Positions 2,431 through 57,789 of a stretch of DNA of 64,000 nucleotides are shown piece after piece. The notes under the pieces were generated by a model. That model was not told the DNA's origin, searched no databases, and worked only from the letters and a program-made list of their open reading frames with translations. The stretch's first letter is position 1. Every line of letters begins with the position of its first letter. This DNA is from Turbatrix aceti. Its lineage: Eukaryota > Nematoda > Chromadorea > Rhabditida > Panagrolaimidae. The stretch spans positions 7,263,246 to 7,327,245 of the forward strand of contig OZ017770.1 in the NCBI GenBank assembly GCA_963969345.1, read 5' to 3'. A program made the position numbers and the translations under genes.

Positions 2431-2660
2431 ATAAACAGGCTATTTAGGAAGTGCAGCGTCCTGCGCTGTGATCTTTCGAAAGACTCTGGGGATACGGTAG
2501 CTATTAATCAAAAGACGGGAGTCCGGGTTGACAGAGGGGATCGAGTTGTTGATGACTCATCCCTCGAGCGCCTGTCAGCTTAAGACCCCTCCCTTTAATC
2601 ATACCGCGGACCTAGGTTAATTAATTGCCTTGTTTTGGCCTCCGGCTGTTGATCGCATTC

Positions 2661-2683
2661 TTCTAGAAGCTTCTCGAAGCTTC
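2661..2683 (+). promoter_or_regulatory. Heat-shock element in the LTR (five perfect TTC/GAA units)
   Basis: TTC at 2661, GAA at 2666, TTC at 2671, GAA at 2676 and TTC at 2681 follow each other at exact 5-base spacing. This is the canonical HSF trimer site (alternating nGAAn units). It lies about 60-85 bases upstream of the TATA box, a normal place for a functional HSE. Heat or stress induction of the element is inferred, not shown. Confidence 0.8.
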
Positions 2684-2745
2684 TAGCCGCGATCGGCATG
2701 CCTAGGCTACCACTAGTCGAAGGCGCCGCCCCCAAGATCGAAGCG

Positions 2746-2753
2746 TATAAAAG
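2746..2753 (+). promoter_or_regulatory. TATA box of the LTR promoter
   Basis: TATAAAAG occurs in a GC-rich stretch of the LTR, downstream of the heat-shock element and about 100 bases upstream of the AATAAA at 2855. Transcription would start near 2775, defining the U3/R boundary. Confidence 0.7.
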
Positions 2754-2921
2754 CGCCTCGATCCGGCCCTTTCGGCAGAGTCTAATTGAAGACTAAACTC
2801 CCTAATTTACCTTGTCCCTACTTTGACATTATCGTTTGTTCGTATTATTATTTCAATAAAAGTTGTTGAGGAGTTTTGTCAGTATCCTTGCAGAGGGAAC
2901 CGAGTAGAGGGACACATCAAT

Positions 2922-2934
2922 TGGTGCCACGCCC
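2922..2934 (+). other. Primer-binding site (tRNA 3'-end complement)
   Basis: TGGTGCCACGCCC begins with TGG, the complement of a tRNA CCA end, and lies within a few bases of the LTR end. The second LTR element shares the GTGCCACG core at its own PBS (52809-52820). I cannot assign the primer tRNA. Confidence 0.6.
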
Positions 2935-2996
2935 TAACTCTGTAAGTTGATACTTACTCCTAGTTTCCGGAAACTTATTAACCGCCTAGCTAGCGG

Positions 2997-5993
2997 ATGG
3001 TTTTTACACGACAACAACTAAACGACATGTCTACTTTATTCGAGAAAGGATCCACTTTGGATCAGACAATCAAGCAGCTTCAACTGTTCGCAGGAAGCAC
3101 TCTGAAGTCTATCAATGACGCTGATAACACCATGAAAGAAGTGGAACTACGCCTGAATAAACTGGAAAATACGACAACAATGATGGCCAAAGAACTGAAA
3201 ACGCTGATGGAAAACGCTGCAAACGACTACGATAAGCTGAAGAAAGCTTTGATGGAAAACGCCGAGAACTACTGTGAGAAGAAACTGATGGAAACTGTTG
3301 GAAATGATTATGAGGAACTGAAGAAAATGCTGGAACAACAAATGACGACCGCGGAAAATGAACGTACGGAAATGGAAAGTGAGATAACCAAAATGTTTGA
3401 ACAATTATTTGAAATCAAGGAAACGCTGATCAAGAAGGTAAACGAAATGGAAGAATTCAAAAATTCGATGATGAAAATGGAAAAGAAAATGGCTGTGAAA
3501 ATTGGAAAAGAAGAAAATGCGCAAACGACGACAATGGAAAGCGAAAAGAAAACGGCGACGACGACGACGATGTTGGAGAAAATGACGGCGAAAATGGAAA
3601 AACTGAAGGCAGAAATGGATGGAACAGTGAAAACTGAAAAAGAAACGATAACAAAACCAACGACGGAAAACAAGAAAACATCGATACTACGACGCGACGA
3701 ATTCTGCGTCCCCGCAGAATCAACAACGATAAGCCAGCTCCGAGAACGCCTAGACGAAATAAAAATTCAACGTGAAATCGAGGCTTTGGAAAAGGAATTG
3801 AAAGATCAGGAAAAGAAAAACGCCCCAATTCGCATCATTTTTGGTACTAAGAATGTCACGCACGGAACCTTGGAACTGGAAAACGATATACACGGTACGG
3901 ATACGAACGAGAATGGAAAGCCAAAAATTGGTCAACTTAACATGCTCTCCATCAACATTCCGACGGACGACGTACCTCAGTTCACTGGAGATCCGGCTCA
4001 AGTATTCACACAATGGCTACGACAACTCGAACTACAAATAACAAAGTACCCTTTCGACCTCAACGAAAAGAGACGTCTAGCCCACCTGGTATCAAAGCTC
4101 AAAGGAACGGCACTCATGGCATACGATTCCTTCCCCAGGCACATTAGAAACAACTACAATGATACTGTGGAAGCACTGCACCGCCGATTCCCCAGCGACC
4201 AGGCAAAGAAGAACGCCACAGAAGCCTTTGCCAACTGCTACCAGAACAAAGGAGAAAAGGTACACCAGTACTTTGAACGTCTGGCCACTCTTATCTACAC
4301 TATGATGGAAGGAGAACGAGCTGACGTAATCGAGAATGTCCTACTTCGTGAAACAATCAACAGAATGAGACCAAACCTTCGTGCATACGTTCGCGACAAA
4401 GATCCGGAGACAGCTGAAAAAGCCCTCACATTAGCACAGCGACAAGAACAGCTTAATGAAGAACGTGCCCGCGCAAGCTCACCGGACAAAGATGTGACAA
4501 ACATGGCAAAAGCTTTAACAATCTCGTCAAAGAATCAACAGAAATGCTACAAATGTCAAAAACCTGGACATTTTGCTAGCGAATGCCGCACACTAACTTG
4601 CCAATACTGCCACAAACCTGGACACACAGAGAATAGCTGTTGGGCAAAGAACAAGAGTCGAAATCACTTTCAACGATTCCGTAACTCACACTACAACCGC
4701 AAGTCGTCCCCATACCAACGAAGCTCAGGAAACTCAAACTTTTCCCGAAGGAACTTCAACCGTAATCGATCACCGTCACCTGGAAACAACCGCGGATATG
4801 GACGCAACGATCGGAGAAGTCATAGCACTACCCCAGAACGCAAAACAACTGTTAGGTTTGCGAATGCTAATCCAATCTACGCAGCAATGAATACAATATT
4901 GCCAATCAACACCACAACTCCAGGCAAAAAGTCAGGCTTAGCGACAAACCTCCTGATGACTTTGAGCATAATGGCAATCTTCACCACTCCAATTACCGCT
5001 CTTACACAAACGGATGACGTACTATTCTGTACAGCAAATGCACCTACTTCGTACTGGACGCTTCCAAACAAACCACCCTGTCAAACGCCTGAATTTCGTC
5101 CTCTGGATGCTGTAGTAGAAACGACATGGGATGTCCACAGGCCAAACACTATTGAATACCAAACAACAGCCCATCACTGCCAATGCCGACGTACAACCCA
5201 AACTCACAAACAAAGCTTCTTTGGAGACCACATCTACTCCGAACCAATTATCGTACCAGCCCCCACAACCGTAGCAGAATGCAAAAGAATGGCAAACGTA
5301 CAGCTATCAGACCATGGCAGTCTCCTAAACCAAACAGAATTCTATGGAACAAACAACACGTTGAAATTCCCAGAGCACTGGTTCCCACGTTACATGATCA
5401 GTGACACTGATTCAGTCACCAACTGCTACCATAGTACAACAAACATCTACACACGACACGGAACCGAAGAAGTAACGAAAGCAATCCCATCAACAATACC
5501 CTGCTTCTATAGACATGGCTCATGCCAATTAGATGATCAAGGAGTCTTAATCTGGTCACCAGACCAGACACACCAATGCAAGTACATCAAAATGAGAAAA
5601 ATGGAAGGTTCTTTCGGAGGCAACATTTTTATCGCAGAGAACAAACAATTTGCTCTGTCTTTTCACCCTGAAAACGAGCATGCCAGAACTAACGACTGCA
5701 ACGCCACCTTTCTTTTGTCAGATCAAGGATACGCCGTACCAATCAAAACGTGGAACTCAACAATAAGTAAACGCGATCTAAAAATTACCCAGAAACCGCG
5801 AATCAAACGGCAAACCGGAATCGTCCTTACCGAGCAATTCGCAGCTCAACTAACAGCACTGCAAAGAAATACCGACGCCACGGCTAAACAATTTTTTACC
5901 GCATCGGTACGACACGTCTGCTCAGCACTGGAAGCCATCGCCGAAGCAACTGTCGCACTAGCTGCAGCCAATCCAACACTCTTAGCTCGATAA
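2997..5993 (+). CDS. Gag fused in frame to an envelope-like glycoprotein (998 aa)
   Basis: Residues 1-270 are charged and coiled-coil rich. Residues about 320-490 form a retrotransposon Gag domain. Two CCHC zinc knuckles follow near residues 517-545, then an Arg/Ser-rich tail. At about 645-668 a hydrophobic segment like an internal signal peptide opens a cysteine-rich ectodomain with several N-glycosylation sites. A basic IKRQ cleavage-like site lies near residue 938. The frame ends in TAA at 5991-5993, in the middle of the glycoprotein as judged from the related element at 54760-57417, where the aligned codon encodes Gln. The glycoprotein would mediate membrane attachment and fusion if active. 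Which fusion-protein class it belongs to is uncertain: layout and cysteine pattern suggest capture from a negative-strand RNA virus lineage, but I could not test this. Confidence 0.85.
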   Translation: MVFTRQQLNDMSTLFEKGSTLDQTIKQLQLFAGSTLKSINDADNTMKEVELRLNKLENTTTMMAKELKTLMENAANDYDKLKKALMENAENYCEKKLMETVGNDYEELKKMLEQQMTTAENERTEMESEITKMFEQLFEIKETLIKKVNEMEEFKNSMMKMEKKMAVKIGKEENAQTTTMESEKKTATTTTMLEKMTAKMEKLKAEMDGTVKTEKETITKPTTENKKTSILRRDEFCVPAESTTISQLRERLDEIKIQREIEALEKELKDQEKKNAPIRIIFGTKNVTHGTLELENDIHGTDTNENGKPKIGQLNMLSINIPTDDVPQFTGDPAQVFTQWLRQLELQITKYPFDLNEKRRLAHLVSKLKGTALMAYDSFPRHIRNNYNDTVEALHRRFPSDQAKKNATEAFANCYQNKGEKVHQYFERLATLIYTMMEGERADVIENVLLRETINRMRPNLRAYVRDKDPETAEKALTLAQRQEQLNEERARASSPDKDVTNMAKALTISSKNQQKCYKCQKPGHFASECRTLTCQYCHKPGHTENSCWAKNKSRNHFQRFRNSHYNRKSSPYQRSSGNSNFSRRNFNRNRSPSPGNNRGYGRNDRRSHSTTPERKTTVRFANANPIYAAMNTILPINTTTPGKKSGLATNLLMTLSIMAIFTTPITALTQTDDVLFCTANAPTSYWTLPNKPPCQTPEFRPLDAVVETTWDVHRPNTIEYQTTAHHCQCRRTTQTHKQSFFGDHIYSEPIIVPAPTTVAECKRMANVQLSDHGSLLNQTEFYGTNNTLKFPEHWFPRYMISDTDSVTNCYHSTTNIYTRHGTEEVTKAIPSTIPCFYRHGSCQLDDQGVLIWSPDQTHQCKYIKMRKMEGSFGGNIFIAENKQFALSFHPENEHARTNDCNATFLLSDQGYAVPIKTWNSTISKRDLKITQKPRIKRQTGIVLTEQFAAQLTALQRNTDATAKQFFTASVRHVCSALEAIAEATVALAAANPTLLAR

Positions 5994-8530
5994 CTACTAA
6001 ATCAAACATCAATTAAGGCAAAGTTGATTACAGCAACGACGTTGGAAGTTAAGGCATGCAACGAAATTCCGTTCGAAACAATAACATTCCTACCTCAAAA
6101 GCAATGTTACGACAGACTACCCGTAGAATTTATTTACCACCACCATAAGCTACAAGCTTTTCTTGACCCTATCTCCCGTATATTGGAGCCGACAGCAAAA
6201 GAAACAACTTGCTCAGAATCGCCTTACATCTTCATTGACCGAAGTAACGGACAACTTCAACGCTACGACCAAACAACAGGCCATATTGAGTTCGTTCACA
6301 AACTCATTGAAATCGGCAGATTCCGAACCATCGATTTCCCTGAAATCAACATTGGAGACAAACATCAAATCTATACGAATCTGGTATTAACCAATCTTTC
6401 GGAAATCTTTTCATTCCGACGCTTCGAGAAAGACATTTCAAACCACTTGAACGTCCAAGAAATGATCGAAACATACGAAAACTCGCTCGACAATGGACTA
6501 TCACTACAAACAAATCAGCCATACCAAACCATCAAAGAAAAGAAAGCAATGCTTTTTGCCGAATCGCTGGTAGCGAACGGCCTTTTCGGATTTCTTACTG
6601 GAGGAATTTTTGCACCGTCTCAAATATGGATTTTCGCATGTTGCACATACGTCACCGCAGCAGCAATCGCCAAAATTATCTTGCCTGCCTTGGTACAAGA
6701 AATAATGCGCTACACCAACCTCCCTTTTCTGACTAACCGAGTAGCAAACAACGTACGACAATGGAGCAGACAACGCAATGAAAGACGTCAAGAACAAGAA
6801 AGACAACGACAAGCAACAGCAGCACTTCCTCTGCAGAATTTAATACCTGTCAGAACATTTGGAAATCAAATCTGTGCCACCACAAAGGCTCACGTTGATG
6901 GCTACTTAAACGGAATACCTGCAAGAATGCTAATCGACACTGGGGCCGTATTCTCAGTTATTCATAAAACTTTCACTGAGCGCCATCAAATCAAAACAAA
7001 ACCGGCTGAAGAAGAAATCAAGCTCGTTGGAATCAACAACACTCCCATAGTATGCAAACACGTTGCACCGATCACAATCACCCTTCAAGGAAGAAAGATT
7101 CAAAGCAACCCTATCGTGATCGAAGAAGACCATTTCGCACACTGCTACGACATTTTATTGGGAGAAGATATTCTCGACCCCAACGGCTTCGTCATCGACT
7201 ACACCAATAAGACATGCCACATAGGCAAAGCAAGTGTAGCAATGGCAGACGCTTACGCATCAGTGAAAACAACCCAGGAACAAGATGAAAGCATCATAAC
7301 TCTACCAAAAACAGATCTACCTGCAGAAAACGTCAACGAACTTGTGGATCTCATCGAGCAATATTCAAAACTATTCAGCAGAAACGACAAAGATCTAGGC
7401 AAATGTATTATTACTGCCCCGAAAATGAGCGTAAGCAGTGACAAACCAATTACGACTCAACCGTATCGCATACCAGAGACAGTAAAACCAGCAGTTGACA
7501 CATTCATCAAAGAAATGCTGGAGACCGGCGTACTAATCGAATCCACAACTCCCTGGGTATCAGGAATTGTGGTCGTGCCCAAGAAGAACGGCAAACTACG
7601 ACCCTGCGTGGATTTTCGCCGACTGAATAATGTCACAGAAATGGACCCATACCCATTACCAAGAATTGAATCACTCTTGAACAAAACTTCAGGATGCAAT
7701 TGGTATAGCACATTAGACATGAAGTCCGGCTTCCTTCAAATACCACTTGACGAGGAAACAAGCCGACACTGCGGAATTATCACAGAATCAGGAATATATC
7801 AATTCACTACCATGCCATTCGGATTGAAAAACGCTCCTGCTATCTTCTGCCGAGTTATGTCAACAGTATTACAAAACCTGGAAGACTTCGCTTTGGCATA
7901 CATGGACGACATTATTGTCTTTACACGCAGCCCAAATCCCGAAGAACATCTAAAAGCCTTGAAGCTGGTATTCCAACGCCTAAAAGACTATGGACTCAAA
8001 ATTCACGCTGAAAAATGCTCTTTAGCCAATCGCAGTGTCACATATGTGGGTCACCGCATCGACATGGATGGAATAAGCCCATCCGATGCCCACCTTAATT
8101 CCATACGGAAGTACCCTGCACCCACAACAGTCACAGAAATCAAAAGATTTCTCGGCCTAGCCAACTTCTTTAGGAAATTCATTCCTCACTTCGCAGCTAT
8201 TGCCAGACCTCTTACAGAACTCACACGCAAAAACGTGCCATTCCAATGGGAAGAAGCTCAACAAATCGCTTTCAAAACTCTCGTGGAAGAACTTACCAAA
8301 CCTCCAATCTTAGTAGCACCTGACTACACTCGTGAATTCATCGTTCACACAGATGCCAGTTTAACTGGACTCGCTGGAACAATCCTACAGAAGAATGATG
8401 ATGAATTAACTCATGCCGTTGCCTATTTCTCTCGACAACTGACATCAGCAGAAAAGAATTACTCTACAACAGAACTGGAATTACTGGCACTAATCGCAAT
8501 ATTAGAACATCTACGACACATCTTGTACGG
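5994..8530 (+). pseudogene. Env C-terminal part, protease, RT and truncated RNase H
   Basis: This continues the same reading frame after the TAA at 5991-5993; the first downstream ATG is at 6024. The segment begins with the rest of the envelope-like protein. Its hydrophobic membrane anchor lies at about residues 185-225 counted from 6024. An aspartic protease follows (LIDTG at about 302), then Ty3/Gypsy reverse transcriptase (conserved blocks about 480-690, YMDD near 625) and RNase H (HTDAS near 774). Similarity stops after about residue 835, where the retroelement sequence gives way to unrelated AT-rich DNA; the open frame runs on to 8594 with non-homologous residues. No integrase follows. 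The copy cannot support its own transposition. Confidence 0.88.
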
Positions 8531-9124
8531 TATGCTTTCTCTTTTTCGCGTCATTCGAAAAAAAAGCGTTCAAGGCGTTTTGTGTCGGTCGTGATAAATT
8601 AAATAATGTCTAATATATTTTGTTGTCTTTGAAAATTATCAATTCAATGCGTGTGTGACAACACTACAGTTTGTATCTCTTTTATCTTTACTTTTTTTTC
8701 CAGATTTTTTAGCTGCAAAGCGAATATTAATCCATAGCAACAGACCACGCCTTTTGCGGAATAAGGAAAGTATAATTTACATCGGCAACTTTCATATCAT
8801 TAACGAAGCTACGAGCAATGACAGGTATTTAATTCAAATTAAGCGCTTATATCACAGTTGAAGTTTAATTTGTTTCATAGCCCACGTATTATCTGTCATT
8901 TAACTTTTTTAACTGTTGTCTTGTTTTGGAAAAAAAAACATTATTTACTGACAGCTTACGTTTTTTAATCTGCTTGACGATTGTGAATAATTTGTTTTTT
9001 TTTGCTTTTTAATTTTTTATTTGGTGTGTTGAGAACGGCTGCCATGGAGCACCTGTCTTTTTTTACCTGCTGATGATTCATTAATCACTTATTTGCCTGA
9101 CAATTTTAGGGACTTTAACAAACT
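8531..9124. other. AT-rich leader region upstream of the GPCR
   Basis: No coding sequence seen. It begins at the retroelement break point and ends at the start codon of the receptor at 9125. It contains a T-rich acceptor-like TTTTAG immediately before the GPCR leader, compatible with a 5' UTR exon or trans-splice site. Confidence 0.5.
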
Positions 9125-28550: not shown

Positions 28551-28702
28551 TACATGTTTCTCTTTTTTCGCCGGAACCTCTTACTTTTCGCTTTGTTCTC
28601 CTGTCTCTAACGTCCGTCTCGATGTCATCGTCTTTTCAAGACTGACGCGAATCTCACTGCTGACGCATTCAAAGATACCGTCAAGGCGGATCTCAACTTT
28701 TG

Positions 28703-29726: not shown

Positions 29727-29727
29727 C

Positions 29728-29957
29728 TTGTTCATTATTATGCCTGACTGATTGATTACATAAATAACTTACAAACTAATGATCGAAGTACATTGAAAAA
29801 AAACTAACAAACAAAGCAAATCAGCTGGGATTAAAGAGAAAGTACGAGACTCATTCATAGTATGAATTTCATACGTGGATCCATTGCGTGCGTTCTGACT
29901 ATATTGAGTGCTCCCAAAACGATTGTTGCAGGCCAAGGCCACGCTCACAGCAGCCAA
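29728..29957. repeat. Target duplication copy A' (uninterrupted, with hAT empty site)
   Basis: 230 bases match 25242-26043 minus the hAT insert, in direct orientation. The copy runs from the last codons of the Ly6 gene to a point 53 bases upstream of the OST3 start codon. It carries a single GTTGCAGG at 29925-29932. Confidence 0.92.
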
Positions 29958-30010
29958 AGCCACGCGTTCCTCTCGACAGTCGGATTCCGATTTGAAGCTG
30001 TTGTTTTCAG

Positions 30011-31388: not shown

Positions 31389-31708
31389 TTTATTTGCATT
31401 TTTGGTTTTGTTGCTTTTTTCTTTGCAATTGGGGGTAAGTCACATATAGAGCTGAATAAATTGTCGTTTCTCGAACTGCTCCAACTAATGCTGATTTATA
31501 AATAACAGAAGTAAGAGCCTGACACATATATACTTCCAAATGCAGGTCTAAAACACGTATTTTGAATTTGGCGGTGATTTTGTAAAAATATCAGACGCAA
31601 ATAATCAAGTGTTCCCCCAACTGCAGGTTGCGCGCATTCGGGAAACATCAACCTTCATTTGCAAAAAACTGATAATCCAAGCACGCTTGTTATTGCATAT
31701 TCTTCACG

Positions 31709-32202
31709 ATGGGCAACACAGTCAGCTCCAAAGTCAACAACGATGTCATCCTCAGGGAGGTTCGGGAGTTTTATTACCCTGCTTTGATAGACATGAAAAT
31801 TTTTGTTTTTTAGACATCCGAATATCCCGTAGTCGTTTACTCGAAGCCGAATTGTACGTATTGCAAGCAAGCTAAGAATGTGCTCGAAGAGAACAAGATC
31901 GACTACAAGGAGAACAATCTCGAGCAGATTTCCCAAGACAATCCCGATGGATACCAGGCAAGTTTGGTAGCGATGGCCTAGGCTTTGACCTGTCGGTGCT
32001 TGGGTAAACAAAACAACGCGTCTGTCTTATTTTACAGGCGTACGTCAACGGTTTGGTCTACACAACGCGTCAAACCACGGTTCCCCAGATTTTCATCTGT
32101 GGCAAGTTCGTTGGCGGCTTTACCGAGCTCAACAATCTCCAGAATGCTGGCAAGCTTCTGGACGCCGTTGCCGAGTGCGCGAATGCCACAGATGCTCCGT
32201 GA
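31709..32202 (+). CDS. Glutaredoxin with predicted N-myristoylation
   Basis: Three exons (31709-31759, 31814-31957, 32038-32202) give 119 residues. The dithiol active site CTYC near residue 29, the cis-proline motif TVPQIF and the GG glutathione-binding turn are intact, so it should reduce disulfides and protein-glutathione adducts. The N-terminus MGNTVSSK fits N-myristoyl transferase substrates, suggesting membrane attachment. The second intron starts with GC (CAG|GCAAGT at 31958), a rare GC-AG intron with otherwise strong donor sequence. An AATAAA follows near 32245. Confidence 0.92.
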
Positions 32203-32604
32203 TTTCTTTTTTCTCTCTGCCCGTATGTTTTAATAGTAGCTGAATAATAAAGCTTGTTACTTCGGACAGCCCACAAGCTTTGGCGTAGTGTGACATGACG
32301 TTGCTTAGCAGTTTTAACGAGCAGGCTTTTTTGACTTTTTTGTAGGATTGAGTCTACAAATTCGGCTACGTTTTACGGAAAGCTTACCACGCATTATTCA
32401 GGTTTGTTTTTTTCGACTAATATATCAGTTTTTGTGGGGTAAAAATGCGTGAGGGGTTTTTTTATTGCAGTTTAAGCATTGGTGTTTGGCTCAACTTTCA
32501 AATCCTCGCAATTTTATTAGTCTCGCATTGTCTCACATACATTTACATTGATCAATTTTTGTTATCCTCTCCTCAACAACCCAAGCAGTTACATGAATCG
32601 CAGG
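32203..32604. other. Spacer between glutaredoxin and neuropeptide gene
   Basis: Convergent 3' ends meet here. AATAAA for glutaredoxin lies near 32245. No gene is seen. Confidence 0.5.
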
Positions 32605-33001
32605 TTATCCTATTCTGGCCGCAAAAACACGTCTTTTGCCAATTCGGGCAATGTACAAGCGCTTTTCGATAGCGGAATTGCCGAATAGAGTTCGCTTTTG
32701 TCTTGAGTTGCTAAAATTTTTGAACTTTTACTATTTTCTAAAACAAAGGGATACTGTACCTGGTGTCTGCGTTCGGCGGTGTTGGTGGCACGTGGAACGG
32801 CAGTCTCAATGACGGAGCGAGGTAGAAAAAACGTGGGCCACCTTTATTCGCGGTGATCCTCGATGGCGGCGGTAGGATGTCCTGCTTGTATCTGCTGCCT
32901 CCATCGTAGTTGCCTTGAGTAACCGTCGCAGACGCTCCATAGATTACGGATAACGTAAAAATAATAGAAGATATTCTGTTGCAATATACGCCGCCGAGCA
33001 T
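32605..33001 (-). CDS. CAPA/NLP-44-like neuropeptide precursor
   Basis: Two exons (33001-32760, 32710-32605; intron 49 bases, AG|GTACAG to TTTTAG) give 115 residues. A signal peptide (IISFTLSVIYGASA-like, residues about 9-25) is followed by a Pro-rich spacer. Exon 2 encodes dibasic sites: QKR, EKR, then LYIARIGKR and a terminal RVFAARIG. The Gly next to KR, and the C-terminal Gly, predict amidation to LYIARI-amide and (R)VFAARI-amide. LYIARI-amide closely resembles LYMARV-amide of nematode NLP-44, a CAPA/periviscerokinin relative that signals through neuromedin-U-type receptors. A 5' UTR exon likely ends near 33088 (CTCAG|GTGCGT). The unspliced frame stops before the peptides, so the gene is easily missed. 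Confidence 0.78.
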
Positions 33002-33294
33002 ACTGAAATATTTTTACGGAAAGAAATGAATACTCAACTACTCCATCCGTATTCGGTCCTGATATAATACAAAACTTCTGGCACGCACCTGAGTTGTTTC
33101 TTGCTTATTCTGCCTATGCCCGCCTTCGCAAGACAAATAGGTAGTGCGCTACCGTTCGCCCCAATTGTCCTTATCGCCTTTACCTAAACGAAATAATAAT
33201 GACGTAAACAAACGCACGCGGCAACTAACCTTTACAAACAATGGAATATAATTTTTTTTAATTATATTAAATAACAAGTTACCTTTTTTAGGCT

Positions 33295-34261
33295 ATGCGG
33301 GTCTTACTAGCGCTGTCAACGCTGCTTACGATAACGAAGAGCGATTCTGAGACGTCTACCGGGGGATGGTGAGTGGGAGAAAAACTACAAAGGCACAGGA
33401 AATGTTTTTGGCTTCAGGCAACTTCCGGGCGAGCAGCAGGTTGGATTCGAAGGTCCTTGCAACATCGATCGGGTCGACGGCAAGATTCTTACTGACGCCC
33501 AGTTCCTCGACGCCTACGCCTTCCAGAAGCCAGTAATTGTCTACAACGTCGATAACAAAAAATTCCGCGAGTCTTGTGAAAAACAAGAGATGCTCCAAAA
33601 ATGGGATGATGTTGATGTTGTCTTGAATTCTGCAAACACGTATTCGTACTCTCGGAGTGAGTTAACCAATTTATAGTTTGTTTCATTATAAACAGCTTTT
33701 TTCAGAACCTTCAACTTTTGGAAAGTACGTGCGTGATTTGCTAAGACCGCAAAGCCTTGACACGCTCGGCAATGGTAAGTCTTTGAGGGCAACGCACGAC
33801 GTCATTCTCATTCACATTCACCCCTCGTGACTTTAGAAACGTGGTATCTCTTTGGCGACATCGATCAGGACGTGTGGAAACCTCTCTTGGAGCAGTACAG
33901 CCTTCCCGAATGGACATTGCCCAACCACGAGCCGGCTCTCAGCTTCGGAATCGCAGCCGCCGGCACCGGCGTACCATTTCATTTCCACGGCCCGGGCTTT
34001 GCGGAGGTCATTCATGGCAGCAAGCGCTGGTTCTTGAGGCCATACGAAGACCGCCCGGAATTCGATCCCGACAAATCGACCCTCGACTGGTACGTCAACG
34101 AATATCCAAAACTGCCCCCGAACAACGGACTCCTGGAATGCCTCATGCGACCTGGCGAGATTATTTACTTCCCAGACAAGTGGTGGCACGCAACCCTCAA
34201 CGCGGAAACTTCGGTTTTCATCAGCACCTTCCTGAGTCCAGTCAGAAAGACAGAACTCTAA
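33295..34261 (+). CDS. JMJD8, ER-lumenal JmjC protein
   Basis: Four exons (33295-33368, 33418-33656, 33706-33774, 33837-34261) give 268 residues, matching the usual 264. A signal peptide (MRVLLALSTLLTITKS) directs it to the ER. The cupin/JmjC core includes FGIAAAGTGVPFHFHGPGF, SKRWFLRPYE, PGEIIYFPDKWWHATLN and SVFISTFL, all JMJD8 hallmarks; His residues in HFHGPG and WWHATLN are the expected metal ligands. JMJD8 is linked to NF-kB signalling, metabolism and ER protein complexes in mammals, and its catalytic activity is unsettled. The last exon crosses the start of the right inverted-repeat arm at 33843. AATAAA at about 34315. Confidence 0.92.
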
Positions 34262-37200
34262 ACTTACGTGTTTTTTTGAAAATAGACTCGTGCAAGAAAT
34301 AACAGTTGTTTTTTGAATAAAGGTGAAATCCTTCTACGTTTGACATTTTGGGGGTCGGGGTAACCGGTCCAGTCGTCGATTTGTACCTCCCTTTGGCATG
34401 CTTATTTTCATCACAACAGAAGCCTAGGATGTTTTTCCTTAAGGCTTTGACGTTGACGTCATGGAAAACGATTGAAGAAAAGCACCGTATATCAAAACAA
34501 AAGCTGTTTATGCGACAATGTGCAGGCACAAATGCACACGCATTTTTTGTTATGATCAAATGATTAATATAGATAACGCTCATAAATATTTATCAGAATC
34601 ATGATTGTACAAATTGCATCTATGTATACGCTTTTTCTCTCAGAGCATCTTTAGTAATCAGTTTTTATGAGTTGAAACAAAAAACAAATCCATTTCATTG
34701 AAACAATAATCATAGGTAGGCCCGAATACAACGATTCAAATATAATAACTGCAATTTTTCCGGCATATAAACAAATACCTGAGCGAAATTGGAAGTCACA
34801 AACATGGAAAAAAAAGTTGAGATCCGCCTTGACGGTATCTTTGAATGCGTCAGCAGTGAGATTCGCGTCAGTCTTGAAAAGACGATGACATCGAGACGGA
34901 CGTTAGAGACAGGAGAACAAAGCGAAAAGTAAGAGGTTCCGTCGAAAAAAGAGAAACATGTAAGTAGTATGTAAATTATAATGGGCAAAATGCTCGTTCA
35001 GCGACAACTTTACATACTACTCATGTAAAACAAATTAAAGAAAAGTGAACAGGAAGATGTTTGATACGAACCAGTAGAGAAGTCGATAGGCTGTACTGCC
35101 CGCGCGCTGATCCAACAAAAGAGAGAGAAGATATAAGCAAACTTGAACCCGCCGTCGATGACCACGTTGACACCAGGAGATGCATAAATGAGCCTTGGGC
35201 ACCCGCGTCCAACTGTCTACATTTGAGACACATTCTTGAACCGTAGACAGTAAGTAAACGCAACGTTGGATGCAAAATCCGTACGACGGTTGCGCATTAC
35301 CCAGGATTTAGCATCGTAAGAATCTTGTGTGGTGCAGTCAAAATCCTGCGGCGGAAAAAAGCGTTGTCGGTCGTGCAAAGGCGTGTCCTTGGTAAACAGA
35401 ATTCCGGGATCGACGGACAACAAAATACTGACGGTTATTTGACTTGGAATGCCAGGAAGGATGGCGGTAACTTGATTATACTCAGCCTTCATCAGAGACC
35501 AAAAGTTGGAATCCAGATCCAACTTTGGATGAAATGGGTGATCAGTGACGTTCAAATTGATTTTAGTAGCACCCGGAAAGGTAGACGTCAAAAAGTTGAT
35601 CAGCATCTTGCCGTCAGATAGCGCATTTGGTGTATGCCAATGAAAGTACATGTATTTAACGTGTTGCAGTTCTTGTTGGTACATACGCATGACATCAATG
35701 ATGTCCTTCACAGTCATTGCATACGAATGCAGTTGAAGCGTGGTCAGCGAGATTCCGTCAAAAAAGTTCTAAAAAAACTTATAAAAACTTAAAAAGTTCA
35801 ATAAAAAAATTTAACTTACTTCCAGCTTACTGAAGAAATCCTCCCCCTCCAAATTGCCGGCAAAACACAGCAATTCAAATCGTGAAAAAAATTTCTTCAC
35901 ATGGTTTAGTGATTTGAAATTGATGCACAACTTGTGTGTAATTGAGAATAAATCTAGCGATTCCGGATAAGAAAACCAATTTTCCTTCGCATCGGCGACA
36001 TTGAAGACGGCGAGGTCTGAAAACCGTTATTGTAAAGTGTTTAAAACTAAAATAACTAACACTTCTTTTTAAGTAGGGATTCATAGAAGCACAGATTCAA
36101 AGGACTGTACACGTCGTATAAATAAACGTTCAAAACGAACGGGGCCACCCACTGTGGACAGTAGCCAAAAATCCCCCTTGTTTCATCAGATTTTCCATTT
36201 TTTATGAAAAATAGGTCTTCGTCAAAATAATGAGACACATAGACTTCTCGCATGAGACTAGCGAATGAGAGCGTCAGGCTCACGGACGAGAAGACAAGCT
36301 GCCGAATTTTGTCGAAATCCTCACGCAAAAAGACGGAACGCAGAAGAGGAGTAATGTAAGCAGTGGACAGGGGTCGGGTTTTGCTGAGTCTGAAATTAAT
36401 GAAACATTCAACTATCGCAAAATACAACGATTCAAATATATTTCAAATTGAATCTTACTCATAACTACTGGTATTCAGGAAAAGAAACTGATGGGTTAAA
36501 GAAAACAAAAAAAAAGGATTCTTTGCTCTAAGTTGCATCTTTGAACTCACTCCTCTTCTTCTTTTTCGCCGTCGTACTCTTCCTGACTGTCGTACTCATC
36601 TTCGCAGTCGTCGTCGGTCGGTACATCAGATTCTTCCTGGGCATCGCACTCCATTCGAGGAACCTTGGCAGCCGGTGGTTCTGATTCCGCGTCAAAAGGG
36701 TAATCCTTGTCATCGCTGGCACTGCCGATATCATTGTTGTTGCTCGTATCGTGCAATGCCGAGTTGGAGTTTCGAGTAAAGTGCTCGTTCGCGAAATCTA
36801 AAAAGAAAGAAATCTATGAAAACGCACAAAAACGACTAATACTCACCCTGCACCGATGAATCCGAGTCCGAAGACATGACAGAACTGTGAATTTGACACC
36901 AACGAGCGGTTTTTACGACGCTCTTGCAAGCGTGATCTAAAAAAGACGCATTATTTTCGTTTCGAAAGCCCTGTTTTTTGCACTGCGCAAAACCCAATGC
37001 TCTTTTTCTTTGCCACGGCCAAGATCATGCTTTTTTTCCTACACGAAAGCAAGAGCAACATAAAAAAACATGGAGAGAACAAAAATGTTCAAGCAAATAA
37101 TAATTTGACGATAAGTGAAAACCGTCATCACCGGTGTTTTTGCTTTCGGGCCGAACTTTGTCGAGCCGAGCAATTGATAGCTTGGCAAATCTTTTGTTAT

Positions 37201-37480
37201 TATTTGTAAAACTACAAATGAAACAGTATTGCTATTGGCATTTTTTAAGGTTTGGGTTTTTGTGGATACTGAAATCCATTGGCTGAGCACATGTGTGCCG
37301 ATTGTTAAAAAAAAAAATGACTGGGCTCGGGTAGGCTTGCACGCTAGGTGGATTTGAGTTGAGCACGACAACTCAGGTGCCTCTGTTTTTCAAGCTCTTT
37401 TCAGGGTTTACTAAAAGCTCGTATAAAACTGCATTCATAATATTTACATAAACATTAAAAAATAATTATTCCTTTGCAAT
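33843..37480. repeat. Right arm of the ~3.7 kb inverted repeat (probable source copy)
   Basis: Reverse complement of 26044-29726. It is continuous with the complete JMJD8 gene, so this arm is the ancestral location. It spans the JMJD8 last exon, the convergent spacer, and the twin gene on the minus strand with its upstream region. The far edge near 37480 is approximate because similarity fades in AT-rich sequence. Confidence 0.92.
35217..36877 (-). CDS. Unrecognised 451-aa protein, right copy of twin genes
   Basis: Five exons (36877-36847, 36797-36551, 36389-36061, 36016-35820, 35768-35217) form an intact frame with exon lengths identical to the left copy. It has the same acidic disordered N-terminus and Leu/Phe-rich remainder, with no recognised domain. 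Exon 5 differs from the left copy at only two residues (Ile for Thr, Met for Val). Exon 3 differs at about 26 of 110 and exon 4 at about 14 of 65. Differences cluster in charged or exposed-looking positions such as GKSDETRGIFGY. No frame breaks exist, so both copies are probably expressed proteins. Confidence 0.75.
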
Positions 37481-52218: not shown

Positions 52219-52223
52219 ATCAG

Positions 52224-52804
52224 TGTAACGTTTGTAACGTTACGTCGTCACTCGTAACAACGTTCCGTCGTCACTCCGTCACTCCCACGCCACGCAGTGG
52301 GAAAATGCGCGGTGACGCAGTGGGAAATGCGCGGTGTATTTTGCGGCCGCACCGGAAATTCCACCACTGCGCCGTCATCATCAACACCGGAAATTCCCAC
52401 GGTGCGCCACCAACCCCCACTGCGCCGTCATCATCAACACCGCCCCCAAGCTAACTTCACACCGCCCCAAGCTAACTTCTCCAGGCCCTTCCCGGCTCCA
52501 GCTCCGTACACTTATAAAGGGCGCCGTTGTCTCCTCCCGGCTCAGAATTCAAATTCAACCCCTCCGCTTTTCCCCGTTCGTTTCTTTTCGTTTCTTTTTT
52601 TTATTTGTTGCCTTTTGTTTGCCTTCTCCTCTCCATCCCCCGCCGTGGCTCGAACTATTTTTTTATATATTGTATTAACCGTGTTCCTATTTTTTTTTGT
52701 ATATCTTTTATATCGTGAGGTTTAATTACCCAAGTTTGAGATAAACCCTGCTCTTTGAATTGATCGATTACGCACACACGCTCACCTAACACGAGGACGT
52801 AACA
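52224..52804 (+). repeat. 5' LTR (581 bp)
   Basis: Matches 57187-57767 throughout. U3 contains several short direct repeats: CGCAGTGGGAAA(A)TGCGCGGTG twice, ACTGCGCCGTCATCATCAAC twice and CCCCAAGCTAACTTC twice. TATAAAG is at 52513-52519. Open frames inside it are present in both LTRs and are not genes. Confidence 0.95.
52513..52519 (+). promoter_or_regulatory. TATA box of the LTR promoter
   Basis: TATAAAG in a GC-rich U3, downstream of the repeated motifs, about 290 bases from the LTR end. Confidence 0.65.
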
Positions 52805-52808
52805 TTTT

Positions 52809-52820
52809 CGTGCCACGACC
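52809..52820 (+). other. Probable primer-binding site
   Basis: CGTGCCACGACC begins four bases after the LTR and shares GTGCCACG with the PBS of the first element. It lacks the expected TGG start (TCG instead), so the match to a tRNA CCA end is imperfect. Confidence 0.5.
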
Positions 52821-53075
52821 AATCGACCGCAGGACCAGCTCCTCCCGCAAACAGTTGGTTTAACCGTTTTCTTTTTTTTTATTTCTATATAAGTTGTCCC
52901 TACCTTCCGGAAGTTCCCCCCCCCTTTTTTTTTTTCACCTTTTGTGATCTAAGTGAATTGAATTGAATTTTATTTATTCTTTTTCGAAAAACAAAAAGTC
53001 TATCCGAATTGAACTTTAATTTTGCAAAAGTCTATACTGAAAATTATTTTCGGAATTTCGATTACAAAAAAAAAA

Positions 53076-54971
53076 ATGTCTGACCCTCCGTTCACACCCT
53101 CTCTATTTGGTCACATTTCGACCACTCCGAAGTCCATCAAAGAACTGGCAGGCCACGTCAACGATGTAATTGAAAATTGTCAAAAACTGGAAAAAGAAGT
53201 ATCGATCGAACTAACAAGGATGGCCCGGGGATCGAAGGAATTGGAGAAAAGCACAGTGGAGAATAATACGGCACTTATGAATAAATGGGATGAGCTCATG
53301 GACGAAGCAGAAAAATGGCGTAAAGAAAACACGGAACTGAAAATGAAAATCAAGAAGCTAGAAGAAAGGATGACGACGATGGAGGAGAAAAATGAAGAAG
53401 TGCGAAGGACGACAAACGAGGAAATATTTGAAAGAAAGGCCGACTACGAAGAGATAAATTTGAGAATCAAGGACACGGAAACAGAATTGCGATACACAAC
53501 AAGCCAATTACGAAAAGAAATCCAGAAAATCGAAGAACCCGCTTGCATAATCCCACTACTCGTGAATGACATGGACTCGAAACCATCGCAGCGCCAGAAG
53601 CAACAAGAGGAGGAATGTCGACAAGCGGACCTCCTCATCGAAGAGACTGAACGGGCCCTCGCAGCGAATCCCGAAAACGACCTTCTTCAAATTGAACTCG
53701 CGAATCTAAAAGCTCTCAAGCAAAACATCGAAGAACAACCGGAAATCAATGCTATCACGCACGACTCAAACGAAGGCGAATTTGAAATCTTGTCGCTGTA
53801 CTCCATCTCGGACAGCGATGACGAGGACATAAAAAGCGACGAGCTCGAAGAAGGAGAAATCCCGTACGAAGACGACCAAGCATATCCCACTGATACCGAG
53901 GAAATAGTTCATCAACAACAATGCGACGAGGACGACCTAACGTATTTCGAAGCTACGAATGAATTTGTTGCTCCTATCATCTACCGCAGCGTTAAAGAGC
54001 GCACCCCTACGCCGGTACCATGGAAAAACGCCCCGTCGCAACACAAGCCAAAGCATCACTATCCAGAATCTCGGAAACGGTCTCACCAAGCCCAAAAGAG
54101 CAGATACCCGCACCCGTATCAACGCAATGAAAACGAGCACCGGCACAGAAAATCGCAGCAACCCGTCGACTTTTACATGCTCGGACACGGCACACACGCT
54201 AGCAGACTCAAACCGTTCAACGGCTTGAACAGCCAACCGTTCGAATTTTGGAAACGCGATCTCGAGATCGAGATGACCGCTGCCGGACTGCCCTTTACAG
54301 AAGCCCGTAAAGTTGCTTATTTGGCACACAATCTCGACGGGCCTGCAAAGGCAAAGTTCCACGCACTCGACGACAATACGAAAGCCGTGTATGAGGAAGT
54401 AGTAAACGCACTTACTGCCGCTTTCCCCACAGCAAACACTATTGCAACGGCGTACACAAGACTGCAGGAATCACAACAACGAAGCGAAGAAACAGTCGAC
54501 GAATTTCTGTCCCGACTCGAAGAACTTCTTCGGGCAGCGTACCCCAACGCAGACGACGCAACGATCCAGCGAGACGTCATTCGCGAATCGCTAAGCCGCC
54601 TCAAGGCAGAAATTCGATCCGTTGTTTACGCCGAGATGCCATCCACGGTGGCGGAACTCAAGAGAATTGCCACGAGACAAGAGCGATTGTTAAGCTGCAA
54701 ACCAAAAGAACTAACCGTGCAAGTTATGGCAGTTAACCAGACGACACCTCGCACCTGCTATGCATGTCAGCAACCAGGGCATCTCCTCCGAGATTGCCCC
54801 AACGTCAATATTCGCACGCGGTACCCCCAGTACCTACACAAACCTCGGAACAGTTTTTTTCGGAAACCCGCCGCAAGGATCATATCATCCGAACCCGACA
54901 TATCCAACCGGATACAATTCACAGCAGCCGCCGATGGCAGCCCAATCGCAGGCACGTCCCTACTGGAATAA
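53076..54971 (+). CDS. Gag polyprotein of the gag-env element (631 aa)
   Basis: The ATG at 53076 follows an A-rich leader. Residues about 20-170 are a long coiled coil, 190-330 acidic and disordered, 375-545 a retrotransposon Gag (capsid) domain, and residues 561-574 one CCHC zinc knuckle (CYACQQPGHLLRDCP). The other element has two knuckles. The last about 55 residues after the knuckle read in a different frame from the downstream glycoprotein, which overlaps at 54760-54971. The frame is intact. Gag would form particles that package RNA; maturation would need a protease in trans. Confidence 0.9.
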   Translation: MSDPPFTPSLFGHISTTPKSIKELAGHVNDVIENCQKLEKEVSIELTRMARGSKELEKSTVENNTALMNKWDELMDEAEKWRKENTELKMKIKKLEERMTTMEEKNEEVRRTTNEEIFERKADYEEINLRIKDTETELRYTTSQLRKEIQKIEEPACIIPLLVNDMDSKPSQRQKQQEEECRQADLLIEETERALAANPENDLLQIELANLKALKQNIEEQPEINAITHDSNEGEFEILSLYSISDSDDEDIKSDELEEGEIPYEDDQAYPTDTEEIVHQQQCDEDDLTYFEATNEFVAPIIYRSVKERTPTPVPWKNAPSQHKPKHHYPESRKRSHQAQKSRYPHPYQRNENEHRHRKSQQPVDFYMLGHGTHASRLKPFNGLNSQPFEFWKRDLEIEMTAAGLPFTEARKVAYLAHNLDGPAKAKFHALDDNTKAVYEEVVNALTAAFPTANTIATAYTRLQESQQRSEETVDEFLSRLEELLRAAYPNADDATIQRDVIRESLSRLKAEIRSVVYAEMPSTVAELKRIATRQERLLSCKPKELTVQVMAVNQTTPRTCYACQQPGHLLRDCPNVNIRTRYPQYLHKPRNSFFRKPAARIISSEPDISNRIQFTAAADGSPIAGTSLLE

Positions 54972-57417
54972 TGGGCAAAACCAACGACAAGCTCCGCCGT
55001 TTGAACCCCCGGTCTACGCATCGCGTCAGCACTGGGGCTACGGGCAACAACTGAACAACCAATTCCAACCTCCTCGCCAGTACTGGAACAATATGACAAC
55101 GCAACGCCAACCTAACGCGTTTCGAAACCCAGCATACGCGCCACGGCTACATTGGAATGCCGAAACCGAGCAACAACAAGTTTCAGCACCACACGGCCAT
55201 CGCAATGGGCACCAGGGACAGGCACAACCACGGGCCGAACAACCACAAATCCGGTTTGCAAGAGTTGGTAATATGGAAACGGCTCCTGTATGGCAATGCG
55301 TAGATGAGGCTGATGTAAACGAAAGTGCTATTGACACAACCGAGGAACTGACAAGCAATGAAGCTGAGGAAGTGGAAGCAGCCCCTGTCACAGACCACCC
55401 CAGAACGGCAACGTACTCGCCTCGTGGGTCATGGGCAAACTTGTTTTTGTTGATCGCGATGCTCCCTCTATGGACGACAGCACAAATGATATGCCCACCA
55501 ACCGCACCTGACACACTCGTAAAGTTGCCGCACGCCGCGAGATGCAAAATACCGCCGTTGACAAACATAACCCCTCGGTCCTACGAATTAACAATATACC
55601 GACCAAACACAATCAGGTACAAAACGAAAGCTCAACACTGCACATGTTGGACGACACGATCTACGCAGTCGCGAACGTTCCTAGGAACCCTAGTATCAAC
55701 GACAGCGACAGAACCGAAAAACTTGTCGGTCAAGGACTGTGAAAACATGATCAAACTGCATGAAAGCCCCGCAGGCCGTCTCTTCAACACGACGCACGCT
55801 TGGACCACAAACAACACGACACCTACACCACAACGACCGTGGCCACTCTGGTTACTAACCGAAGTCCAAGAGGTTTCTAACTGTGCCCTGGCAGACACCT
55901 ATGTTTACGCAAAATACGGAGAAAACAACATACTAGCTCAACCGAATCCCGAAAAACCATGCGACTATCACGCTGAGGAATGCAGAGTCAATAACGCGAA
56001 CATATTGATCTGGAAAGCCATTGAAGAACAAAATTGCCGGTACGTAACCATGGGACAATTCGCAGGCAGCTTCACCCCAGGCTTATGGATGTCATCAAGC
56101 CATGGGGTAGCACTGACGTTCCAAAACACCATGAGGGTATTCAACTGCCATAAAATACTCTACATCACTGACCAAGGCTTCGCGATAGAAGCAGCACAAT
56201 ACCACGATCTCAAGGATCCCGAACCCAGAAGCCGAGGCAAAAGACAGGACAGCGGCCCGGTACCTTCCACGCAACTGGCAGCCGAGCTGACAGCAGTCAA
56301 AACCGACGTGTCAAATATGTTGAAGCAGTCCTTCTGGGCATCAGCACAAGCGGCTTGCAAAAGAATCGAATTTCTCACCGAAACGATAATGACCCTGGCA
56401 GCAGCTAATCCCACTCTCCTAGCCAGACAATTACTTAACACCACAGCAATCGAAGCAGAGTTAGTCGCTGCCGACATTCTTCAAATTCGCACATGCATTC
56501 CGGTCACGATCAATGAAACTATAGATCTACAACAGTGCTACGACAAACTACCGGTCAAGTGGTCACGAGAAAACCACACAGGCGATGGATTCTTAGACGA
56601 AGTAACAAACATCATCCATCCTACGGCGAACAGAGTCAATTGCGGACAGCCAACACGTAAAAATACAAGCAAAATACAAGAAATCCCACTCTTCGGAGAA
56701 GACGCATGGCAATGGCAAGACATCGACGTTACTGTCCCCAACCTAGTACTTCTAAATTGGTCCGAAATCTACAACTTCGAAAACCAACACATGTCCAGCA
56801 CCAGTATATTGTCAAAAGCCGCAATACAGGAAATTTTTCCACATGTTCCAGTCGAAGAACTGGCTCCAAAACTGAAGGACTTTGTAGAAGACATGATAAA
56901 GCCACCCTGGCTTCGAACGCCGACCATCTTCGAGCTCTGGACTACATTGTGCTGTTTGTACGTCACCGCGACTATCGCGCAACATGCACTTATTCTTATT
57001 CTACAACTAGTAAATGCTTACTTACCCGCCTTCACCCGACCTGTTCAAAGAACGCCTACACCATTGCCCCCAAACTACCGGCTCGTCGACCTTCAAACAA
57101 GTAAACATTGGCAGCAAAACGGTCATCCCCGAAGACCAAGCCAATTCCCCCCCTCCCCGAGCTTAAAATTTTTCAAAGGGGGAAGGTGTAACGTTTGTAA
57201 CGTTACGTCGTCACTCGTAACAACGTTCCGTCGTCACTCCGTCACTCCCACGCCACGCAGTGGGAAAATGCGCGGTGACGCAGTGGGAAATGCGCGGTGT
57301 ATTTTGCGGCCGCACCGGAAATTCCACCACTGCGCCGTCATCATCAACACCGGAAATTCCCACGGTGCGCCACCAACCCCCACTGCGCCGTCATCATCAA
57401 CACCGCCCCCAAGCTAA
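54760..57417 (+). CDS. Envelope-like glycoprotein frame, +1 relative to Gag
   Basis: This open frame overlaps the Gag end. It starts with a Gln/Pro/Asn-rich linker that continues the Gag tail in composition. At about residues 223-240 a hydrophobic signal-like segment opens a cysteine-rich ectodomain with many N-glycosylation sites. A basic RGKR cleavage-like site lies near 492, a membrane anchor near 726-750, and a short tail runs into the 3' LTR. It aligns over its length with the glycoprotein of the first element, including the region where that copy has a stop. Expression would need a +1 shift or splicing. The fusion-protein class is uncertain; a negative-strand RNA virus origin is my inference. 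Confidence 0.8.
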   Translation: MHVSNQGISSEIAPTSIFARGTPSTYTNLGTVFFGNPPQGSYHPNPTYPTGYNSQQPPMAAQSQARPYWNNGQNQRQAPPFEPPVYASRQHWGYGQQLNNQFQPPRQYWNNMTTQRQPNAFRNPAYAPRLHWNAETEQQQVSAPHGHRNGHQGQAQPRAEQPQIRFARVGNMETAPVWQCVDEADVNESAIDTTEELTSNEAEEVEAAPVTDHPRTATYSPRGSWANLFLLIAMLPLWTTAQMICPPTAPDTLVKLPHAARCKIPPLTNITPRSYELTIYRPNTIRYKTKAQHCTCWTTRSTQSRTFLGTLVSTTATEPKNLSVKDCENMIKLHESPAGRLFNTTHAWTTNNTTPTPQRPWPLWLLTEVQEVSNCALADTYVYAKYGENNILAQPNPEKPCDYHAEECRVNNANILIWKAIEEQNCRYVTMGQFAGSFTPGLWMSSSHGVALTFQNTMRVFNCHKILYITDQGFAIEAAQYHDLKDPEPRSRGKRQDSGPVPSTQLAAELTAVKTDVSNMLKQSFWASAQAACKRIEFLTETIMTLAAANPTLLARQLLNTTAIEAELVAADILQIRTCIPVTINETIDLQQCYDKLPVKWSRENHTGDGFLDEVTNIIHPTANRVNCGQPTRKNTSKIQEIPLFGEDAWQWQDIDVTVPNLVLLNWSEIYNFENQHMSSTSILSKAAIQEIFPHVPVEELAPKLKDFVEDMIKPPWLRTPTIFELWTTLCCLYVTATIAQHALILILQLVNAYLPAFTRPVQRTPTPLPPNYRLVDLQTSKHWQQNGHPRRPSQFPPSPSLKFFKGGRCNVCNVTSSLVTTFRRHSVTPTPRSGKMRGDAVGNARCILRPHRKFHHCAVIINTGNSHGAPPTPTAPSSSTPPPS
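54854..54860 (+). other. T7 run at the Gag/Env frame change
   Basis: Seven T residues lie in the overlap just where the protein that makes sense passes from the Gag frame to the +1 frame. This could be a slippage site in transcription or translation, or a simple one-base indel that broke this copy. Confidence 0.5.
57175..57186 (+). other. Polypurine tract
   Basis: AAAGGGGGAAGG directly abuts the 3' LTR, the normal plus-strand primer position. Confidence 0.85.
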
Positions 57418-57767
57418 CTTCACACCGCCCCAAGCTAACTTCTCCAGGCCCTTCCCGGCTCCAGCTCCGTACACTTATAAAGGGCGCCGTTGTCTCCTCC
57501 CGGCTCAGAATTCAAATTCAACCCCTCCGCTTTTCCCCGTTCGTTTCTTTTCGTTTCTTTTTTTTATTTGTTGCCTTTTGTTTGCCTTCTCCTCTCCATC
57601 CCCCGCCGTGGCTCGAACTATTTTTTTATATATTGTATTAACCGTGTTCCTATTTTTTTTTGTATATCTTTTATATCGTGAGGTTTAATTACCCAAGTTT
57701 GAGATAAACCCTGCTCTTTGAATTGATCGATTACGCACACACGCTCACCTAACACGAGGACGTAACA
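57187..57767 (+). repeat. 3' LTR (581 bp)
   Basis: Same length and apparently the same sequence as 52224-52804, with the same U3 repeats and TATA box. Followed by the ATCAG target duplication, 17 bases below the CLUAP1 stop codon. Confidence 0.95.
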
Positions 57768-57789
57768 ATCAGCAACACGCTTTGAAATA

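What the first reader, a model, noticed from the sequence alone, without database searches (positions are those of the whole stretch)
52219..57772. A recently transposed LTR element that carries gag and an envelope glycoprotein but no pol
The interior between identical-looking 581-base LTRs, with a perfect 5-base ATCAG duplication, encodes only Gag and an envelope-like protein. Non-autonomous LTR elements normally lose env as easily as pol. Keeping a long intact glycoprotein frame without any polymerase suggests that Gag plus glycoprotein are useful in cis, for example for particle formation or cell-to-cell transfer, while RT and integrase come from a partner such as a relative of the element at 2440-8530.
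Basis: partly seen in the sequence, partly recalled or inferred. Interest (0 to 1): 0.9.

Follow-up and report, generated by a model that had tools for sequence, protein, structure and literature searches.

The report
Pol-less copy of gag-env-pol retroelement
This is a short, polymerase-less copy of a worm retrovirus-like element whose envelope gene sits, unusually, between its coat and polymerase genes, so losing the polymerase simply left coat and envelope behind.

Summary
In detail: identical 581-bp LTRs, a 5-bp ATCAG duplication, Gag and a viral-fusion-type glycoprotein, no pol. Relatives explain it. Four 8.9-kb copies with the same LTR carry gag, env and pol in that order in one reading frame; the window copy lacks exactly 3,395 bp of pol, so env stayed because it lies upstream of pol. 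One other site has the identical junction. A second, independent pol deletion, and three RT-less copies in a remoter family, also keep env. Eighteen elements in this genome read gag-env-RT in one open frame. Env is nearly as constrained as RT in the autonomous families (dN/dS 0.05-0.11 against 0.04-0.05). In the pol-less copies privately arisen changes look neutral (7 nonsynonymous, 3 synonymous), and the window copy has a break between gag and env. I read it as a young, probably trans-mobilised deletion derivative, not a proven gag-env family under selection. The interesting part is the in-frame gag-env-pol order, for which one precedent was found, the planarian Burro giants. The likely helper is a same-LTR full-length copy, not the element at 2440-8530.

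The parts
52219..52223 (.). Target-site duplication ATCAG, left
   Evidence: matches 57768-57772
52224..52804 (+). 5' LTR (TG...CA, 581 bp)
   Evidence: identical to the 3' LTR
52808..52820 (+). Putative primer-binding site (label by position and recalled motif), changed at one base in this copy compared with the six other copies aligned
   Evidence: the primer tRNA is not identified: no tRNA gene at the six of 32 pattern matches examined
53076..54971 (+). gag frame: coiled-coil-like N-terminus, PNMA/Ty3-type capsid, one CCHC knuckle; the end of this frame lies beyond the private frame break
54840..54870 (+). Gag-env linker with a private one-base homopolymer-length change that puts env out of gag's frame (possibly a consensus error)
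55441..55497 (+). Hydrophobic signal or transmembrane segment at the start of env
   Evidence: hydropathy
55498..57108 (+). env: fusion glycoprotein (PF24664 match about 56347-56649), RXKR-type (furin-like, recalled motif) site at 56233-56244, C-terminal membrane span about 56947-57003, which holds a private 6-bp in-frame length change
57108..57109 (+). Deletion junction: 3,395 bp (protease, RT, RNase H, integrase) missing relative to four full-length copies
57109..57171 (+). Relic of the last pol codons, out of the env frame
57175..57186 (+). Polypurine tract
   Evidence: sequence
57187..57767 (+). 3' LTR
57768..57772 (.). Target-site duplication ATCAG, right
2446..8532 (+). Related but distinct gag-env-pol element: 5' LTR about 2446-2876, gag plus env N-part 2994-5993 (ends in TAA), env C-part, protease and RT to 8532; no 3' end. 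Given as context, not as the partner

Best explanation
The element is a pol-deletion derivative of a Ty3/gypsy-type LTR family in which a viral fusion glycoprotein lies in frame between Gag and Pol. Shown: the parent family has gag-env-pol in one open frame; the window copy lacks exactly pol; the junction occurs at two genomic sites; the window copy's LTRs are identical and flanked by a 5-bp duplication. Inferred: the deletion arose once, probably by template switching in reverse transcription. The deleted RNA kept the LTRs, primer site and polypurine tract and was copied and integrated in trans by RT and integrase from full-length copies with the same LTR. In the intact polyprotein Gag would be cytosolic, Env would thread the membrane through its signal and C-terminal span, and Pol would return to the cytosol. 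That layout is predicted from sequence only.
For: The LTR query gives 29 matches; read as pairs they include four 8.9-kb copies (A3-A6) and one further 5.5-kb copy (A2). The four full-length copies align to base 57108, then continue in frame into a protease; they resume at 57109 after 3,395 bp. In A5 that stretch was scanned and holds PR, RT, RNase H and IN. The 120-bp junction sequence is found whole at 2 of 16 matches, the window and C5:7231039; the other 14 are halves at copies that carry pol or another deletion. TSDs: A1 ATCAG, A3 GCTGC, A4 GTTTT, A5 ATTTG, A6 GGTAG. 18 elements have gag, env and a whole RT in one frame of 2126-2762 aa (from the tables). Signal, ectodomain, RXKR-type site, membrane span and then protease recur in the representatives of families A, B and C examined.
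Against: No substitution is shared by A1 and A2 alone (A1-A2 27 differences, A1-A3 14, A2-A3 15), so one origin rests on the exact breakpoint. A2 has no target-site duplication (AAAAT against TTTCC), so it may have been moved or reshaped by recombination. Trans-mobilisation was not observed. The primer tRNA was not identified. A structure model of Env failed (mean pLDDT 36.9).
Confidence: 0.88

Rival explanations
1. One reading: gag plus glycoprotein form a stable non-autonomous family because the Gag-Env product is useful in cis (particle formation or cell-to-cell transfer) while RT and integrase come in trans.
For: Two copies share the junction. A second pol deletion, A10 (C5:2870548-2876897, TSD GACGG; a truncated kin copy A11 at C5:2888-2890 kb has the same deletion), keeps env. 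So do three RT-less copies of the remoter family C (L026, L027, L028; the last two with different breakpoints and 4-bp TSDs), which also keep protease. 25 of the 25 RT rows of this clade that were checked, five of them pieces of one rearranged locus, have an env match upstream. Env differences of A1 or A2 from the full-length copies are 2N:8S.
Against: Changes private to A1 or A2 are 7N:3S, the neutral ratio; 6 of the 8 synonymous env differences are alleles shared with A10, so they belong to a common pool. The window copy has a gag-env frame break and a changed primer site. Gene order alone explains retention. Derivatives with truncated env also exist (L039/L040, apparently L059). Env is broken while pol remains in at least three copies: the window's 2446-8532 element, C6:9452677 and C26 (the last also lacks part of RT). 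A 26th RT row, a 119-aa fragment at C6:5434483 left out of the script, has no env match near it.
Confidence: 0.15
2. The short form is a reverse-transcribed spliced RNA in which pol was removed as an intron.
For: The deleted segment begins with GT, the breakpoint is identical at two sites, and there is no microhomology.
Against: The deleted segment ends in GG, not AG; a canonical splice at the nearby CAG would leave one more G than is present. The other deletions (A10, L027, L028) do not share the boundary.
Confidence: 0.04
3. The pol-less structure is an assembly or consensus error.
For: Several private differences of the window copy are homopolymer-length changes, including the frame break.
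Against: The same junction is assembled at two sites with different flanks, and the window copy has a clean TSD and its own substitutions. The frame break alone may well be such an error.
Confidence: 0.03

Closest known systems
Burro giant gypsy-like retrotransposons of planarians (Arkhipova and Yushenova 2019, PMC6431247; passages and section 7 read; author names recalled)
   Same: env in frame between gag and pol in one polyprotein, upstream of protease; env region hits mononegavirus fusion glycoproteins; gypsy-like pol
   Different: Burro exceeds 30 kb with many extra domains. The family here is about 9 kb with Gag-Env-PR-RT-RH-IN, in several families with many open frames, and with pol-less derivatives
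Anakin: Pao elements with chuvirus glycoprotein in mosquitoes (Dezordi 2020, PMC7642597; abstract and sections 17 and 18 read)
   Same: Glycoprotein of the chuvirus kind captured by an LTR element
   Different: Anakin pol is BEL/Pao; here the RNase H and integrase profiles are those usual in Ty3/gypsy (assignment of profiles recalled). Gene order in Anakin was not seen in the text read
TelKA2n, a non-autonomous rotifer LTR family (Rodriguez 2017, PMC5408684; passages read; author name recalled)
   Same: Non-autonomous LTR element that keeps a paramyxovirus-like env while most of pol is gone
   Different: [quoted passage not shown] here gag is kept and env precedes pol
Cer1 of C. elegans (Sun 2023, PMC10309623; passages read)
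   Same: Nematode Gypsy/Ty3 element without a stop between gag and pol
   Different: Its extra protein CERV lies after pol and, by the paper, does not resemble retroviral Env but is needed for nuclear export of the genomic RNA

Membership tests
Ty3/gypsy (Metaviridae) LTR element | PR-RT-RNaseH-IN order with Ty3-type RNase H and integrase in the family | tested here: met
   Full-length copy A5: PF13975, then PF00078, PF17917/PF17919, PF17921, PF00665 in order. The window copy itself has none, being deleted
Ty3/gypsy (Metaviridae) LTR element | LTRs TG..CA, polypurine tract, short TSD | tested here: met
Ty3/gypsy (Metaviridae) LTR element | tRNA primer-binding site | tested here: inconclusive
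   A candidate site follows the 5' LTR; an 11-base pattern gave 32 matches (16 for the reversed control), several of them primer sites of these elements; no tRNA gene at the six examined
In-frame gag-env-pol element (Burro kind) | env between gag and pol in one open frame | tested here: met
   18 elements with gag, env and whole RT in one frame
In-frame gag-env-pol element (Burro kind) | Giant size with BIR, BCL2 or dUTPase-type extra domains | tested here: not met
   8.9-kb elements; none of these domains in the pieces scanned with Pfam
In-frame gag-env-pol element (Burro kind) | Common descent with Burro by RT phylogeny | not tested
   No Burro sequence was fetched
Monjiviricetes/chuvirus-type fusion glycoprotein | Profile match above curated cut-off | tested here: met
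   Window env 33.2 bits, cut-off 27, about 100 residues of a 653-position model. Also above cut-off in A10 and in 3 of 4 complete B representatives; none in the fourth (L052); the two halves of the window's B env gave 21.9 bits and nothing. Family C frames gave none and are tied in by the env search only
Monjiviricetes/chuvirus-type fusion glycoprotein | Fold | tested here: inconclusive
   AlphaFold model pLDDT 36.9; no sequence match in the PDB up to E 10
Anakin (Pao plus chuvirus glycoprotein) | BEL/Pao pol | tested here: not met
   No Pao-type profile among the pol matches; they are those of Ty3/gypsy
Stable non-autonomous gag-env family | Several copies with different flanks | tested here: met
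   Two sites share the junction; A2 lacks a TSD
Stable non-autonomous gag-env family | Purifying selection on env within pol-less copies | tested here: inconclusive
   Private changes 7N:3S, p=0.53 for fewer N than neutral; only 10 changes, of which 3 lie in env proper (1N:2S)
Retrocopy of a spliced RNA | GT..AG at the deletion ends | tested here: not met
   GT...GG

The most novel reading that the evidence does not exclude
A compact nematode lineage of retrovirus-like elements makes Gag, Env and Pol as one membrane-threaded polyprotein. Because Gag-Env carries out assembly and RNA packaging in cis, pol can be supplied in trans and is lost again and again, while env is seldom lost as long as pol is kept. 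Pol-less gag-env copies would then be a recurrent, functional particle-making form.
Probability: 0.2. Interest if true: 0.75.

Novelty: new variant of a known kind. Interest (0 to 1): 0.5.

Why it matters
Envelope genes of LTR elements normally follow pol and are made separately. A nematode genome with 18 open-frame gag-env-pol elements in several families, and an env nearly as constrained as RT, offers a small system in which to ask how one polyprotein can build a membrane particle, and why env is kept. It also shows that a gag-env element need not mean selection for env: the gene order of the parent decides what a pol deletion leaves.

Tried and rejected
Splicing as the cause of the deletion: boundaries GT...GG, not GT...AG. 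Reading the gag/env frame difference as programmed frameshifting: in all six other copies aligned (A2-A6, A10) gag and env share one frame. Partner = element at 2440-8530: different family, RT 58% identical, no 3' end. Selection on env in the pol-less copies: the raw 2N:8S looks like purifying selection (p=0.0007), but 6 of the 8 synonymous alleles are shared with A10; private changes are 7N:3S. PBS tRNA: nothing found at six of 32 places. Homologue searches with the family C env and with a B-family env C-part found nothing; only the window env search gave two proteins. An IMG/VR scan with the C-part of the window env found no relative. Structure of Env: not usable, so no fold search was run. 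Rows dropped before the counts: 20 of 54 gag rows (the weakest) and 13 of 64 RT rows (weak rows and fragments, among them the 119-aa fragment C6:5434483); all 44 env rows were used. The dN/dS representatives (12 env, 7 RT) were chosen from loci at hand, not at random.
Full report
What was checked. The window lies at G000:C6:7263246-7327245 in a 59.9-Mb genome of 28 contigs. The size fits the 60-Mb, six-chromosome nematode Oscheius tipulae (PMC8022731, passages read), but that name is my inference. The element is as described: 581-bp LTRs at 52224-52804 and 57187-57767 without a mismatch, and ATCAG on both sides. Gag matches PNMA, Ty3_capsid and CCHC profiles. The second frame matches PF24664, a viral fusion glycoprotein, above its cut-off. 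No pol domain was found in the two frames.

The relatives. The LTR finds 29 matches in the genome. Read as pairs, they give the window copy (A1), one more short copy on C5 (A2), and four copies of about 8.9 kb (A3 and A4 on C1, A5 on C6, A6 on C25). Aligned piecewise, the four long copies match the window element at 99% or better, except where pieces include LTR gaps (down to 91%). They part at base 57108 and resume at 57109 after 3,395 bp. In A5 the missing stretch was scanned and is pol: protease, RT, RNase H and integrase. In the four long copies the env frame runs without a stop into the protease.

One open frame. In each of the four, gag, env and RT matches carry the same open-frame length: 2514 aa in two copies, 2240 and 2348 in the others. 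In a count from these tables, 18 elements (4 of family A, 14 of B subfamilies) have gag, env and a whole RT in one frame of 2126-2762 aa, in the order gag, env, RT. Of the RT rows in this clade (50% identity or more), 25 of 25 checked had env upstream, five of them pieces of one rearranged locus. A 26th, a 119-aa fragment, was left out of the script and has no env match near it. RT rows under 40% identity mostly have no such env upstream (1 of 26 does). Outside the genome, a Heterodera trifolii protein joins a PNMA-type Gag to the N-part of this env, and a JGI protein joins the C-part of env to an aspartyl-protease-like stretch with a DTG motif whose profile score is just under the cut-off, so the order is not peculiar to this species.

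Why the glycoprotein is kept. With env upstream of pol, one deletion of pol leaves gag and env. That is the simplest reading of the window element. The exact junction is present at two sites. A1 carries a TSD and A2 does not. A1 and A2 differ at 27 of 4298 aligned sites, each from A3 at 14 or 15, and the four long copies from one another at 1 to 4. The pol-less copies have therefore diverged more than the long copies, partly through alleles they share with a related copy, A10. This suggests exchange within a pool of co-existing elements.

More than one loss. A10 (C5:2870548-2876897; TSD GACGG) lost most of pol by a different, in-frame deletion with a 2-base overlap at its ends; a truncated kin copy, A11, has the same deletion. 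In the remoter family C, L026, L027 and L028 are LTR-bounded elements with one frame of 1509-1709 aa that ends shortly after the protease and has no RT or integrase match (L026 protease just under the cut-off; its 3' end is the contig end, so its TSD cannot be read). L027 and L028 are 99.4% identical to each other and nearly identical to an RT-bearing element on C5 up to the breakpoints, yet their breakpoints differ, so these are separate deletions. L039 and L040 are truncated within env and appear to be one segmental duplication.

Selection. In autonomous families env is strongly constrained. B2 against B3 gives dN/dS 0.05-0.06 for env and 0.04-0.05 for RT, at dS of about 1.1 to 1.3; B2 against B4 gives 0.10-0.11 for env and 0.04-0.05 for RT; A3 against A10 gives 0.26 for env at low divergence. 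For the pol-less copies the raw count of env differences from the long copies is 2 nonsynonymous to 8 synonymous. Six of the eight are shared with A10 and cannot be placed on the pol-less branches. Changes private to A1 or A2 are 7N:3S over gag, linker and env (1N:2S in env proper), against 72-78% N expected. The window copy also has a gag-env frame break, a changed primer site and a 6-bp length change in the membrane span. The frame break is a homopolymer change and could be a sequencing error. There is thus no sign that gag-env is under selection in the pol-less form, but ten changes give little power.

Layout. The representatives examined of families A, B and C share a hydrophobic segment at the start of env, an ectodomain, an RXKR-type cleavage site, a C-terminal membrane span and then protease. 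This suggests that Gag and Pol both face the cytosol with Env threaded through the membrane between them. It is a prediction: the structure model of Env failed.

Known precedents. [quoted passage not shown] PMC7642597 (abstract and two sections) describes chuvirus glycoproteins in Pao elements. PMC5408684 (passages) mentions TelKA2n, which keeps env and has lost most of pol. Nothing on gag-env-pol elements in nematodes appeared in the listings; these cover open-licence papers only, some listings were cut (15 of 25, 10 of 14, 12 of 39), and only the named passages were read.

Verdict. The window element is a young, probably trans-mobilised deletion derivative. The answer lies mostly in the parent's gene order, and that order, in compact and abundant form in a nematode, is the part worth following.

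Noticed in passing
window 2446-8532: B-family gag-env-pol element 99.6-99.7% identical to C2:8509000-8517500, with one stop in env (5991-5993) and cut off in RNase H without a 3' LTR.
   Followed up: partly
L035:785-4552, L036:1671-6499, L037:2471-4897, L038:553-4297: Open frames of 683-810 aa related to the same glycoprotein; in L035 and L038 beside a double-jelly-roll capsid gene and in L036 beside an integrase with chromodomain: apparently Maverick/Polinton elements with a kindred fusion protein.
   Followed up: partly
L046:3206-5857 (-) and L027:2655-2860 (-): Family C: an open frame downstream of pol with an AAA_30 match (33.6 bits, cut-off 27), and in L027 a tail with an AAA_12 match below cut-off: perhaps a captured helicase gene in an LTR element.
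   Followed up: partly
G000:C6:10803778-10810600 (-): Weak matches in the order gag, RT, env: the same kind of env in the usual position after pol, with stops in gag and env.
   Followed up: no
G000:C5:6695000-6717800: Family A pieces in both orientations repeated at a constant 8,442-bp offset: a tandem duplication of a rearranged locus.
   Followed up: no
window 25242-37478: Repeats: 26046-28744 inverted against 34769-37478 (96%), 28759-29726 inverted against 33843-34810 (99.7%), with shorter direct repeats nearby.
   Followed up: no
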